From positions 1-13,468 of the forward strand of contig JAAZCS010000404.1 in assembly GCA_012513125.1 (NCBI GenBank): DNA of 13,468 nt, given 5' to 3'. The DNA comes from Treponema sp. Its GTDB lineage: Bacteria > Spirochaetota > Spirochaetia > Treponematales > Treponemataceae. Shown here piece after piece: positions 2,611 through 6,725 of the stretch. The notes beneath the pieces are model-generated. The model worked only from the letters and a program-made list of their open reading frames with translations. It was not told the origin of the DNA and made no database searches. The position numbers and the translations under genes were made by a program. Position 1 is the stretch's first letter, and every line of letters starts with the position of its first letter.

Positions 2611-2633
2611 TTACATACATATAATTGATTTCG

Positions 2634-2662
2634 TTGAATAACCATTTAAAAATCTTTATTAT
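2634..2662 (+). promoter_or_regulatory. Promoter of gpmI
   Basis: TTGAAT at 2634-2639 and TATTAT at 2657-2662 with a 17-base spacer form a good vegetative-type promoter. It lies directly after the upstream terminator and predicts a leader of about 25 bases with a Shine-Dalgarno sequence. The same -35 hexamer occurs in the prfA promoter. Confidence 0.6.
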
Positions 2663-2680
2663 ATATGTATTAATTATTTT

Positions 2681-2685
2681 AGGAG
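2681..2685 (+). promoter_or_regulatory. Ribosome binding site fixing the gpmI start
   Basis: AGGAG lies 8 bases before the ATG at 2694. This favours that ATG over the in-frame ATG at 2625, which would add a 23-residue hydrophobic extension not expected for a cytoplasmic glycolytic enzyme and would lie upstream of the promoter. Confidence 0.85.
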
Positions 2686-2693
2686 TTATATAT

Positions 2694-4364
2694 ATGGCAG
2701 ATACAATGCATCCTTTGGTAAAAAACACAAATTGGAAAGGACGACGAGGTCCTGTAGTTCTAGTTATAATGGACGGTGTTGGTTACGGAAAATATGAAGA
2801 GGGAGATGCTGTAAAAGCGTCAAAAATGAAATATTTGGATTGGTTCAAATCTCATTGTCCTAATACAAAATTAAAGGCACATGGAAAAGCAGTTGGTCTT
2901 CCATCTGATGACGATATGGGAAATAGTGAAGTTGGACATAATGCAATGGGCTGCGGACGTGTTTTTGCTCAAGGTGCAAAGCTTGTTTCGGATTCAATTA
3001 CAAGTGGAAAAATGTTTAATGGTGATTCATGGAAAAATCTTTTAAGAAATGTTGAAGATAAAAATTCTACTCTTCATTTTATAGGACTTATTTCTGATGG
3101 AAATGTTCATTCTCATATTGAACACTTAAAAGCAATGATTTCACAGGCAAACAAAGAAGGTGTAAAAAAGATTCGAGTTCACGCTTTGCTTGATGGTCGT
3201 GATGTTGATCCTACTTCAGCGTTAGTATATATTTCACCTCTTGAAGAATTCCTTTCTAGTTTTGCTAATTGCGATTATAGAATTGCTTCTGGCGGTGGTC
3301 GTATGTATTTAACAATGGATCGTTACAATGCAGATTGGAGCATGGTAGAACGAGGATGGAATGCACATGTTTTGGGAGAAGGTCGTAAGTTTGCCTCAGC
3401 AGTAGAAGCTATTGAAACATACCGCAAAGAAATCCCTGGTATTCTTGATCAAGATATGCACGAATTCGTTATTGAAGAAAATGGAAAACCTGTTGGAACA
3501 ATAAATGACGGAGACAGTGTAATTTATTTCAATTTCCGTGGAGATAGAGCTCTTGAAATGACTGCTGCTTTTGAAACACCTTCTGATAAAGAGTTCACTC
3601 ATTTTGACAGAAAAAGAGTTCCTTCTGTTGAGTATGCTGGAATGATGGAATATGATGGCGATCTTCACATTCCTCGTCAGTTCTTAGTAACACCTCCTTC
3701 AATTGATAGAACAATGGGTGAATATTTGACAAAAACAGGTGTTCGTCTTATGGCTATTAGCGAAACTCAAAAATATGGACACGTAACATACTTTTTTAAT
3801 GGAAACAAACTTGGAAAATTTGATGAAAAATTAGAAGATTATTTTGAGATTAAATCAGATGTAGTTCCATTTGAACAACGTCCTTGGATGAAGTGTGCAG
3901 AAATTACAGATAAAGTTATCGATGCAATTAAAAGTGGAAAATATGATCATATCCGTCTGAATTTCCCTAATGGAGATATGGTTTGACATACTGGTGTTTT
4001 CAATGCTGTAGTTTGTTCAATGTAAGGAATGGATTTGCAACTTGGAAGAATTAAAAAGGCAATTGAAGAAGCTGGTGGAATCATGTGTATAACAGCAGAT
4101 CATGGAAACAGTGATGACATGTTTGAGCATGATAAAAAGTCTGGAGCTGTAAAAATGAGTAGCGATGGTGAGCCAAAAGCAAAAACTTCACACAGTTTGA
4201 ATCCAGTTCCTGGCATTATTTATGACCCTGAATATAAAGGCGATTATGACAATACAAAGCTGAATGAAGGTCTTGGAATTTCTTCTTGGCCTGCAACAAT
4301 TATGAATTTGATGGGTTATCTTCCTCCTTCTGATTATGATAAGAGTATGATAAATATAAAGTAG
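2694..4364 (+). pseudogene. gpmI: 2,3-bisphosphoglycerate-independent phosphoglycerate mutase, interrupted by two in-frame stops
   Basis: Read through, this is a 556-residue cofactor-independent phosphoglycerate mutase, which interconverts 3- and 2-phosphoglycerate in glycolysis using two Mn ions and a phospho-serine. Visible family residues are Asp27 (IMDGVGYG), the nucleophile Ser78 (GNSEVGHN), Arg169-Asp170 (GRDVDP), Arg282/Arg285 (FRGDR), Lys360 (SETQKYGHVTYF), Asp428 (NFPNGDMV), His432 (HTG), Asp469-His470 (TADHGN) and His500 (KTSHS). Codon 431, the Gly in GDMVGHTG, is TGA (3984-3986). Codon 444, where Glu is expected (SMEGMD), is TAA (4023-4025). Both fit a single G-to-T change in GGA and GAA. 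The frame is otherwise intact. Translation stopping at codon 430 would lose His432, Asp469, His470 and His500, so it should be inactive. The downstream 111-residue fragment could start only at the ATG at 4029, which has no properly spaced ribosome site. It is either a very recent pseudogene, a sequence error, or recoded. Confidence 0.88.
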
Positions 4365-5450: not shown

Positions 5451-5477
5451 GTTGCAAGTTTAGGATAAACTTGCAAC
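5451..5477. repeat. Palindrome 3 of the array
   Basis: GTTGCAAGTTT (5451-5461) and AAACTTGCAAC (5467-5477) are perfect 11-bp inverted copies around the loop AGGAT. It lies between the third C-terminal copy and the terminator, and has no small GCAAGC hairpin beside it. Confidence 0.85.
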
Positions 5478-5482
5478 ATAAG

Positions 5483-5509
5483 TTATTTTTTAAATGATTC
5501 AGCTACGGC
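5483..5509 (-). pseudogene. Third, shortened copy of the GGGtGRT C-terminus
   Basis: The minus strand reads codons for AVAESFKK followed by TAA, matching the last eight residues of the GGGtGRT protein. Compared with the second copy it lacks about 14 bases before the conserved end and one GCTAC-type hexamer, so it looks like a degraded unit. It has no start codon and is not a gene. Confidence 0.8.
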
Positions 5510-5514
5510 AAGTC

Positions 5515-5558
5515 GCAAGCTTTGCTTGCTTCTCGAGTTTGGGATAAACCCAAACTCG
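5515..5558. repeat. Double palindrome 2 of the array
   Basis: A small hairpin GCAAGC/GCTTGC (5515-5529, loop TTT) is followed after four bases by a large palindrome, CGAGTTTGGG (5534-5543) and CCCAAACTCG (5549-5558), loop ATAAA. Compared with palindrome 1 the stem has paired changes that keep base pairing. Confidence 0.85.
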
Positions 5559-5567
5559 CAACTTATA

Positions 5568-5615
5568 CTATTTCTTGAAAGACTCAGCTACAGCTACGGC
5601 ACAAGCTACTGTACA
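5568..5615 (-). pseudogene. Second copy of the GGGtGRT C-terminus
   Basis: The minus strand encodes CTVACAVAVAESFKK and TAG, identical in protein to residues 336-350 of the intact gene. Five third-position differences (GCA/GCT, GAA/GAG, TCA/TCT, TTT/TTC, AAA/AAG) and no amino-acid change separate the copies. It has no start codon and lies behind the stop of the real gene, so it should not be translated. Confidence 0.85.
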
Positions 5616-5619
5616 AGTC

Positions 5620-5663
5620 GCAAGCAGAGCTTGCTTCACGAGTTTGAGACAAGCTCAAACTCG
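5620..5663. repeat. Double palindrome 1 of the array
   Basis: A small hairpin GCAAGC/GCTTGC (5620-5634, loop AGA) is followed by a large palindrome, CGAGTTTGAG (5639-5648) and CTCAAACTCG (5654-5663), loop ACAAG. It begins 9 bases beyond the GGGtGRT stop codon, has no T tract and so is not an ordinary terminator. Confidence 0.85.
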
Positions 5664-5672
5664 CTATGTAAA

Positions 5673-6725
5673 CTATTTTTTAAATGATTCAGCTACTGCT
5701 ACGGCACAAGCTACTGTACAACCGACCATTGGATTGTTGCCCATTCCCATGAAACCCATCATTTCAACGTGAGCTGGAACTGAAGAAGATCCTGCAAATT
5801 GAGCGTCTGAGTGCATACGACCTAGAGTATCTGTAAATCCATAAGAAGCTGGACCTGCTCCCATGTTATCTGGATGTAAAGTACGACCTGTACCACCACC
5901 AGAAGCAACAGAGAAGTATTTTTTTCCTGCTTCAAGTCTTTCTTTCTTATATGTACCTGCAACTGGATGCTGGAAACGTGTTGGGTTTGTTGAGTTTCCA
6001 GTGATAGAAACATCTACACCTTCATGCCACATAATTGCAACACCTTCACGAACATCATCAGCACCGAAACAGCGAACACATAAACGTTCTGGACGTGTTC
6101 CATATGGATATTCTTTTACAATTTTAAGTTGAGCATCTGGATGATCAGCATCACGAGTACCAGTATAGTCAAACTGAGTCTGAACATATGTGAAACCGTT
6201 GATACGGCTGATAATCTGAGCTGCGTCTTTTCCAAGACCGTTCAAAATTACACGAAGTTTGTTTTTGCGTACTTTGTTAGCGTTTGCTGCAATTTTGATT
6301 GCACCTTCAGCAGCTGCGAAAGATTCGTGTCCTGCAAGGAAAGCGAAACATTGTGTTTCTTCACTTAAAAGTCTAGCTCCTAAGTTTCCGTGTCCAAGAC
6401 CAACTAAACGGTCATCAGCAACAGAACCTGGAAGACAGAAAGACTGAAGTCCTTCTCCAATTGCAGTACTTGCATCAGAACCAGAAATAGTTCCTGCTTT
6501 TTCGCCTTTTTTGATTGCAATTGCAGAACCTAAAACATAAGCCCATTTTGCATCTTCAAAACAAATCTGCTGTGTTTGCTGGCAGATATCATAAGGATCG
6601 AAACCGTTCTTTTTGCAAAGATCACGTGCTTCCTGTAATCCTTTTTCGCCTTCAGCAAAACCATATAATTTTAATGTTTTGTTAATCTGCGGAATGCGTC
6701 CTTCGTAATCTTCAAATAATGACAT
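5673..6725 (-). CDS. GGGtGRT family protein
   Basis: A 350-residue soluble protein containing the family-naming motif GGGTGRT at residues 276-282, followed by the conserved LHPDNMGAGPASYGFTDTLGRMHSDAQFAG stretch region (283-311). Other conserved-looking parts are GHGNLGARLLSEETQCFAFLAGHESF (about 111-136) and HEGVDVSITGNSTNP (234-248). The biochemical function of this family is not established. The protein is known to occur beside an IscU/NifU-like scaffold, as here, where the scaffold stop and this start are 19 bases apart. GGAGG lies 8 bases before the ATG, a strong ribosome site. The glycine-rich motif suggests nucleotide or phosphate binding, but that is inference. The last 15 codons and stop are duplicated twice downstream, which makes this 3' end unusual. 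There is no signal peptide or membrane segment, so it should act in the cytoplasm. Confidence 0.9.
   Translation of the reverse strand: MSLFEDYEGRIPQINKTLKLYGFAEGEKGLQEARDLCKKNGFDPYDICQQTQQICFEDAKWAYVLGSAIAIKKGEKAGTISGSDASTAIGEGLQSFCLPGSVADDRLVGLGHGNLGARLLSEETQCFAFLAGHESFAAAEGAIKIAANANKVRKNKLRVILNGLGKDAAQIISRINGFTYVQTQFDYTGTRDADHPDAQLKIVKEYPYGTRPERLCVRCFGADDVREGVAIMWHEGVDVSITGNSTNPTRFQHPVAGTYKKERLEAGKKYFSVASGGGTGRTLHPDNMGAGPASYGFTDTLGRMHSDAQFAGSSSVPAHVEMMGFMGMGNNPMVGCTVACAVAVAESFKK

What the first reader, a model, noticed from the sequence alone, without database searches (positions are those of the whole stretch)
5451..5720. Last codons and stop of the GGGtGRT gene are repeated twice downstream, each followed by a palindrome
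Seen directly: three copies of the gene's 3' end, the second encoding CTVACAVAVAESFKK plus stop with five synonymous differences and no amino-acid change, the third encoding AVAESFKK plus stop. Synonymous-only divergence implies that each copy was under protein-level selection, so each was once the real end of the gene or came from a diverged homologue. This resembles the scars left when integrating elements replace the 3' end of a gene with their own version, but the units are only about 85-105 bases. Alternatives are a palindrome that moves together with a gene-end fragment, or homologous gene replacement with recombination at the palindromes. This would be an uncommon way of building a transcribed 3' untranslated region.
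Basis: partly seen in the sequence, partly recalled or inferred. Interest (0 to 1): 0.78.

Follow-up and report, generated by a model that had tools for sequence, protein, structure and literature searches.

The report
Hairpin element that duplicates gene ends
In treponeme bacteria a small two-hairpin DNA element often sits just behind the stop codon of a housekeeping gene, together with a second, differently spelled copy of the gene's last codons, apparently because gene ends are being swapped between species around it.

Summary
In the window (a Treponema MAG) the last codons of the GGGtGRT gene occur three times. Copies 1 and 2 are each followed by a two-hairpin element (48 nt, ending GCGAC), copy 3 by one related hairpin. 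A covariance model of the element matches 90 of 96 sampled genus genomes. Of 105 elements examined, 36 start 1-15 nt behind a stop in the gene's orientation, and the gene's end (X) often starts again (X') right after GCGAC. Of 41 elements within 45 nt of a stop, 25 are followed by an in-frame repeat of that gene's end: 113 identical, 99 synonymous, 18 non-synonymous codons. The base before X is G at 25 of 33 distinct sites. Occupied and unoccupied groEL relatives indicate that X' is the resident end and X plus element the newcomer; there X even encodes a different C-terminus. Integron integrase, reverse transcriptase and Y1 transposase do not account for the element. Best reading, moderate confidence: insertion duplicates the gene end; the repeat then lets (end + element) be exchanged between treponemes.

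The parts
5673..6725 (-). GGGtGRT-family gene, 350 aa; its last 49 nt (5673-5721) are copy 1 (X), the functional end
5617..5664 (-). Element 1: hairpin 1 (GCGAGTTTGAG/CTCAAACTCG), linker, hairpin 2 (GCAAGC/GCTTGC), GAC; starts 8 nt after the stop of copy 1
   Evidence: (61.6 bits)
5568..5616 (-). Copy 2 (X'): starts directly after GCGAC, encodes CTVACAVAVAESFKK*, 5 synonymous codon differences from copy 1
5512..5559 (-). Element 2, same architecture, 8 nt after the stop of copy 2
   Evidence: (65.7 bits)
5483..5511 (-). Copy 3: starts directly after GCGAC, encodes AVAESFKK*, stop TAA
5452..5476 (-). Single hairpin TTGCAAGTTTA/TAAACTTGCAA after copy 3, at the position of hairpin 1; no hairpin 2

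Best explanation
The feature is a stack of displaced gene ends held together by a small two-hairpin element (E). Step 1 (inferred): E enters just behind a stop codon in the sense orientation and leaves a long direct repeat X-E-X', where X is the gene's last stretch (17-100 nt aligned in the better pairs) and X' begins right after the hairpin-2 foot GCGAC, at a place where the gene mostly reads G|X'. Step 2 (partly shown): because X' is homologous to the end of the same gene in a relative, a piece carrying gene body + X + E can recombine into another treponeme's gene. The gene body gives homology on the left and X' (or a cut at G|) on the right. The newcomer supplies the new functional end X, and the resident end is pushed downstream as X'. 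In the window this would have happened twice, so copy 1 is the newest and copy 3 the oldest resident end (inferred by analogy; no close unoccupied relative of the window was found). Shown: the architecture, the G|, the synonymous divergence, and X' as resident end in the few relatives tested. Not shown: the enzyme or event of step 1, the exact left junction, any function of E for the cell.
For: X' starts 0-3 nt after GCGAC in 49 pairs. 23 of 105 scored elements exceed the 99% point of an unanchored null (512 cross-comparisons) and 13 exceed its maximum. Some pairs are identical or nearly so, as expected for young duplications: L218 32 of 32 nt, L188 24 of 24, L017 24 of 25. 36 of 105 elements start 1-15 nt behind a same-strand stop, while convergent ORFs begin only at 13 nt and show no peak. 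G before X at 25 of 33 distinct sites, p about 1e-9 against 25% (sites preceded by another unit were dropped). 99 synonymous against 18 non-synonymous codons in the in-frame set. groEL: L318 has gene body 96.1% identical to L310 and 97.8% to L313, both without the element; its X encodes DPNMMY, its X' MGGMY, and the stretch behind X' aligns with the L310 flank (84 against at most 10 in 300 shuffles). L312 against L302 (95.9%) shows the same swap with another hairpin family. GGGtGRT L025: 27 of 36 informative sites upstream match L021, the last four before X all do, then 9 of the last 10 match the other allele (L049). Hairpin-2 stem type follows the gene across genomes: 66 of 118 same-gene pairs identical against 267 of 1228 unrelated pairs; permutation p 2e-4. 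ComEC homologue in 15 of 16 genomes tested.
Against: If exchange used ordinary crossovers inside X', differences should pile up towards its 3' end; the trend is weak (mean relative position 0.533, p = 0.053, 23 pairs). The strong G| points to a specific cut rather than plain homologous recombination. Left junctions are few and not uniform (by eye): L312 within a few nt of X, L025 within 21 nt, L318 perhaps 24 nt upstream in a naturally variable linker. L025 and L312 carry other hairpin families, so only L318 tests the window's own type. Upstream in L025, 5 of 36 sites match the other allele and 4 match neither. Hairpin type also follows the genome to some degree (10 of 23 same-genome pairs). 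That sample is biased because part of it was collected with one hairpin sequence, and I assigned the gene labels by hand. 16 of the 41 elements close to a stop have no clear in-frame repeat. ComEC does not prove competence.
Confidence: 0.5

Rival explanations
1. Site-specific cassette insertion: X+E is excised or copied as a (probably single-stranded, folded) unit and inserted whole at G| by an unidentified recombinase, in the manner of integron cassettes with attC hairpins.
For: G before the junction at 25 of 33 sites; tandem units such as L017 and L140 and L082; hairpin stems covary with almost no G-U, which suits a folded DNA strand; L025 and L312 left junctions close to X.
Against: Integron integrase above cut-off in only 1 of 8 element-rich genomes (G002) but in 2 of 6 genomes without model hits. 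No attC-type R boxes seen by eye. L312 and L318 look foreign slightly upstream of G|.
Confidence: 0.2
2. Transposition with long target-site duplication (as reported for IS1549/IS1634) by a transposase acting in trans, the copies diverging later on the spot.
For: Identical X and X' in the youngest cases (L218, L188). IS1549 and IS1634 make 8-514 bp direct repeats (PMC2266710, passages read).
Against: Divergence on the spot would not be expected to give 80-85% synonymous changes behind a stop codon, nor different natural C-termini as in groEL. IS1634-type transposases were not searched. As the origin of step 1 only, it remains open.
Confidence: 0.15
3. RNA-templated replacement: an mRNA 3' end ending in the hairpins is reverse transcribed and its cDNA replaces the gene end (diversity-generating retroelement or group II intron style).
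For: Sense orientation, position just behind stops, recurrent housekeeping hosts; 3' boundary at a hairpin foot.
Against: Reverse transcriptase over cut-off in 4 of 12 element-rich and 2 of 10 element-poor genomes, none in G087, G060, G054, G077 (genomes are incomplete). Stem changes almost never pass through G-U.
Confidence: 0.07
4. REP/REPIN-type elements moved by a RAYT (Y1) transposase, with gene-end copies incidental.
For: Short hairpins, many behind genes.
Against: Y1_Tnp over cut-off in 3 of 12 rich and 1 of 10 poor genomes; no GTAG tag; at most 44 model hits in a genome; gene-end repeats at 25 of 41 elements close to a stop.
Confidence: 0.05

Closest known systems
Displaced ends in T6SS effector-immunity arrays and Rhs loci, explained by homology-facilitated illegitimate recombination (PMC5361080, passages read)
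   Same: New gene end enters with homology on one side; the old end or immunity gene is kept downstream; repeated rounds build arrays
   Different: There whole toxin/immunity modules change; here only the last few to about 30 codons of mostly housekeeping genes, mostly without protein change, and a conserved hairpin element marks the junction at G|
Integrative elements that supply an alternative gene 3' end, e.g. e14/phage 21 at icd (recalled; one search gave only a listing, nothing read)
   Same: Resident 3' end displaced by a synonymously recoded one
   Different: No integrase or large element seen; many target genes; X-E units of 69-396 nt in 39 pairs
Rickettsia/Wolbachia palindromic elements in housekeeping genes (described in PMC2996958, passages read)
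   Same: Palindromic element in many unrelated genes; one in-frame case here (L123)
   Different: Here behind the stop with a duplicated gene end; no such duplication is mentioned in the passages read
REP elements, GTAG- and CGTC-tagged families (PMC3733652, section 6 and passages; PMC8266576, passages)
   Same: Hairpins mostly downstream of coding regions; CGTC families lack a known dedicated transposase; on the complementary strand hairpin 2 is preceded by GTC
   Different: Two different hairpins in fixed order, low copy number, X-E-X' repeats; the REP paper cites frequent G-T pairs in stems, these have nearly none
IS1549/IS1634 long variable target duplications (PMC2266710, passages)
   Same: Long direct repeats of variable length
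   Different: No transposase gene in the short units, and repeats synonymously diverged

Membership tests
REP/RAYT elements | GTAG (or CGTC) tag at the stem foot | tested here: not met
   Foot is GCGAC, sometimes GCGGC; no GTAG (by eye). GTC on the other strand is only a partial likeness to CGTC
REP/RAYT elements | RAYT/Y1 transposase in the genome | tested here: not met
   Y1_Tnp over cut-off in 3 of 12 element-rich genomes; whether those genes are flanked by the hairpins was not checked
Integron attC/cassettes | Integron integrase in the genome | tested here: not met
   1 of 8 element-rich genomes; present in 2 of 6 genomes without R1 hits
Integron attC/cassettes | attC core boxes RYYYAAC / GTTRRRY | tested here: inconclusive
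   Not seen by eye in type A elements; no attC model run. Some elements lie next to repeated AACGCC motifs
IS1634-type MITE | Terminal inverted repeats and a transposase source | not tested
   No clear terminal inverted repeats seen by eye; transposase family not searched
IS1634-type MITE | Long, variable direct repeats | tested here: met
HFIR-type displacement (Rhs, T6SS arrays) | Homologous junction on one side | tested here: inconclusive
   Three close pairs, one of them with the window's element type
HFIR-type displacement (Rhs, T6SS arrays) | Resident end kept downstream of the newcomer | tested here: met
   L318 against L310; L025 against L021 (by eye)
Palindromic elements of Rickettsia type | In-frame insertion within ORFs | tested here: inconclusive
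   One case read, L123; many elements lie behind stops
Known Rfam RNA | Match at gathering threshold | tested here: not met
   0 matches over 9 sources, 48,383 bases

The most novel reading that the evidence does not exclude
A new class of protein-less mobile element whose unit of mobility is 'the last codons of a host gene plus two hairpins': it homes between species into the same housekeeping gene at a G| site, replacing the gene's end with a recoded but functional one, so that it never damages its host, with a dedicated but unidentified strand-cutting enzyme.
Probability: 0.25. Interest if true: 0.9.

Novelty: new variant of a known kind. Interest (0 to 1): 0.7.

Why it matters
It offers a genus-wide natural record of gene-end replacement between bacterial species, with newcomer and resident ends lying side by side. 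That makes the direction, donor and junction of single recombination events readable from sequence. If a dedicated enzyme is behind the G| junction, it would be a new kind of mobility that keeps essential genes intact by carrying their ends along. It also warns that behind-the-stop repeats in these genomes need not be decaying debris, and it may bear on how a hairpin comes to sit behind a gene, the open question of how integron cassettes arise.

Tried and rejected
Simple recent tandem duplication: rejected as the whole story because the changes are mostly synonymous. Known RNA family: no Rfam match. Phage or plasmid source: no match of an occupied groEL end (L205:150-300) in 72,556 plasmid records, nor of the window repeats in 50,697 phage records (one query each). 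Integron integrase, RT and Y1 as movers: too few of the element-rich genomes have them; RT and Y1 are slightly more frequent in the rich set (4 of 12 against 2 of 10; 3 of 12 against 1 of 10). Gradient of differences along X': weak. The hairpin-1 pattern with up to 2 mismatches matched the own genome only at this locus. Whether the end duplication is general to this gene family in other phyla: 1 of 51 loci outside the genus set scored 14 or more (L082), and it is itself labelled Treponema (L035-L062 were left out of that count). Other hairpin families in the same layout (types B and C in my notes) were seen but not modelled. Papers: none found describing this, from the searches in an open-licence library only; apart from the papers named under Closest known systems and PMC1590033 (passages), only listings were seen.

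Full report
WHAT IS IN THE WINDOW. The window is contig C246 of a draft genome (G000, 2,265,936 bases, 406 contigs, 80.6% complete) whose nearest named relatives are rumen Treponema and Spirochaetaceae MAGs. On the minus strand the 350-aa GGGtGRT gene (5673-6725) ends in CTVACAVAVAESFKK*. The same 49 nt recur at 5568-5616 with five synonymous codon changes, and a 29-nt version at 5483-5511 (AVAESFKK*). Between the copies lie two elements of 48 nt (5617-5664, 5512-5559): hairpin 1 GCGAGTTT..AAACTCG, a short linker, hairpin 2 GCAAGC..GCTTGC, then GAC. Each starts 8 nt after a stop, and the next copy starts directly after GAC. Behind copy 3 there is only a related single hairpin (5452-5476). The repeat is far beyond chance (39 against at most 14 in 2000 shuffles).

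IT IS A FAMILY. The gene was matched in 81 of 98 genomes drawn from the genus. Of 30 genus loci of this gene scanned (window and L006-L034), 13 have a repeated end downstream by a fixed score, against 1 of 51 loci outside that set, and that one (L082) is labelled Treponema. The exact hairpin-2 pattern GCAACCGNAGGTTGCGAC occurs in 20 of 96 genomes and its reversed control in none. A covariance model from 17 elements has matches at E <= 0.001 in 90 of 96 genus genomes, up to 44 per genome, and at E <= 1e-4 in 73 of 118 genomes drawn from the family, 14 of 20 genera. Weak hits there are unchecked, and no shuffled control was run for the model. The stems behave as real structures: on 69 distinct matches, from 58 sources that I chose, 98.5% of 1057 cells pair, with 153 two-sided changes against a mean of 48 in shuffles and at most 19 in slid controls. 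That alignment was fitted to the model, which leans towards it. One-sided changes number 4 of 1057, which is unusual for RNA and suggests that the DNA hairpin is what counts (inference).

POSITION AND ORIENTATION. My own finder gave 105 distinct elements in the loci then held, a set biased to the best matches and to GGGtGRT. Of these 83 have an ORF of at least 70 codons ending within 300 nt upstream in the same orientation; 43 of the 83 end within 28 nt and 36 within 15 nt. Convergent ORFs (74) begin at 13 nt, with 4 within 28 nt.

THE REPEATED ENDS. In 49 pairs X' begins 0-3 nt after GCGAC. By an unanchored null (512 cross-comparisons, some between units of the same gene; 99% point 21, maximum 26), 23 of 105 exceed the 99% point and 13 the maximum, so part of the weaker pairs may be chance. 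In a set of elements chosen without regard to similarity (41 within 45 nt of the stop of an ORF of at least 100 codons), 25 are followed by an in-frame repeat of that gene's end: 113 codons identical, 99 synonymous, 18 non-synonymous. The other 16 have no clear in-frame repeat; a few of these show imperfect repeats by eye (L214, L217, L223). Over all anchored pairs 117 of 147 changed codons are synonymous, 24% being expected; pairs are not independent and GGGtGRT is over-represented. From their sequences I read the hosts as GGGtGRT, gdhA, groEL, transketolase, gpmI, pyruvate phosphate dikinase, asnB, carB, ilvD, formate acetyltransferase and phosphotransacetylase among others; these names are my recognition, no family search was run. 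The youngest pairs are identical (L218 32 nt, L188 24 nt). Collapsing 54 sites to 33 distinct ones, after dropping those that follow another unit, the base before X is G in 25.

WHICH COPY IS THE RESIDENT. groEL gives the clearest case. L313 (G076), L310 (G015) and L318 (G003) are 95-98% identical over 900 nt. L310 and L313 end PDMGGMY and my finder sees no element behind them; of 30 groEL loci it sees one in 4 (L297, L298, L308, L318). L318 ends AADPNMMY, then the element, then MGGMY. The 230 nt from that second end onwards align with the L310 end and flank (84 against at most 10 in 300 shuffles). So X' is the resident end and X plus element came in. L312 against L302 shows the same swap with a different hairpin family, and in L308 and L326 it runs the other way (X MGGMY, X' DPGMMY). 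In GGGtGRT, L025 (another hairpin family) mostly follows the unoccupied L021 upstream (27 of 36 informative sites, including the last four before X) and then the other allele (9 of the last 10); its X' flank resembles L021 (by eye). Several GGGtGRT loci switch serine between TCN and AGY in X and X' (by eye), a two-step change that argues for replacement rather than drift.

SPREAD AND MECHANISM. Hairpin-2 stem types follow the gene across genomes (66 of 118 same-gene pairs identical, 267 of 1228 unrelated; permutation over 45 units p = 2e-4) and less clearly the genome (10 of 23). This favours exchange of the same locus between species, with rarer jumps to new genes; the sample is partly biased by the pattern used. 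Integron integrase is over cut-off in 1 of 8 rich and 2 of 6 empty genomes, reverse transcriptase in 4 of 12 rich and 2 of 10 poor, Y1 transposase in 3 of 12 and 1 of 10 (MAGs are incomplete). A ComEC homologue is in 15 of 16 genomes, so uptake of DNA is possible but not shown. The differences between X and X' do not clearly increase along X'. I therefore commit to a two-step model at confidence 0.5: insertion behind the stop with a long direct repeat, then homologous exchange that brings a new end and leaves the resident end downstream. The G| suggests that an enzyme cuts there in at least one of the steps.

RELATED SHAPES. At GGGtGRT and gdhA other hairpin families occupy the same layout. 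Some carry a reverse complement of the target next to the element (by eye). In distant Treponema (L075, L082) hairpin 1 is formed by the gene's own last codons and an inverted copy behind the stop.

COMPARISON. The nearest published picture in what I read is sequential displacement in T6SS arrays and Rhs loci by one-sided homology (PMC5361080, passages). REP elements share hairpins and place but fail the tag and transposase tests. IS1634-type elements share long direct repeats. I found no paper on this element, in an open-licence library only.

Noticed in passing
window 2625-4364 (+): The gene that looks like 2,3-bisphosphoglycerate-independent phosphoglycerate mutase (recognised from memory) is split into ORFs of 453 and 111 aa (2625-3986 and 4029-4364), which may be a frameshift or an assembly error; described only.
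   Followed up: no
L082, L075, L076 (distant Treponema, GGGtGRT end): Repeated gene ends behind hairpins; in L075 and L082 the first hairpin is made by the coding end itself and an inverted copy behind the stop.
   Followed up: partly
L023, L025, L032, L050, L061 and other GGGtGRT loci; L144, L146, L151 (gdhA): Other hairpin families with T-rich, terminator-like stems in the same X-element-X' layout, often with a reverse complement of the target beside the element (by eye).
   Followed up: partly
L118, L124, L138, L141, L179, L180, L183, L236: Elements followed by AACGCC motifs that are also repeated nearby in several of these loci; could be cassette arrays or another repeat family.
   Followed up: no
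L368 and L365 (G048, G192): Elements followed by sequence that can be read FTAKEQ; in L368 an upstream ORF contains YTPYGEL, which looks like the end of an Rhs core where C-terminal tips are exchanged (recognised from memory).
   Followed up: no
L123 (G019): Element in frame inside a flavodoxin-like gene with NTAVVAE repeated on both sides, no stop in that frame.
   Followed up: partly
L149 and L188: Two genomes share a non-coding target TCATTAAACT..TTTAAAA repeated around the element; nature of the target unknown.
   Followed up: no
L332-L342 (G185): A genome with 16 model hits, three of equal score on different contigs; possibly recent copies. None of those that my finder recognised there had a clear repeated gene end.
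   Followed up: partly
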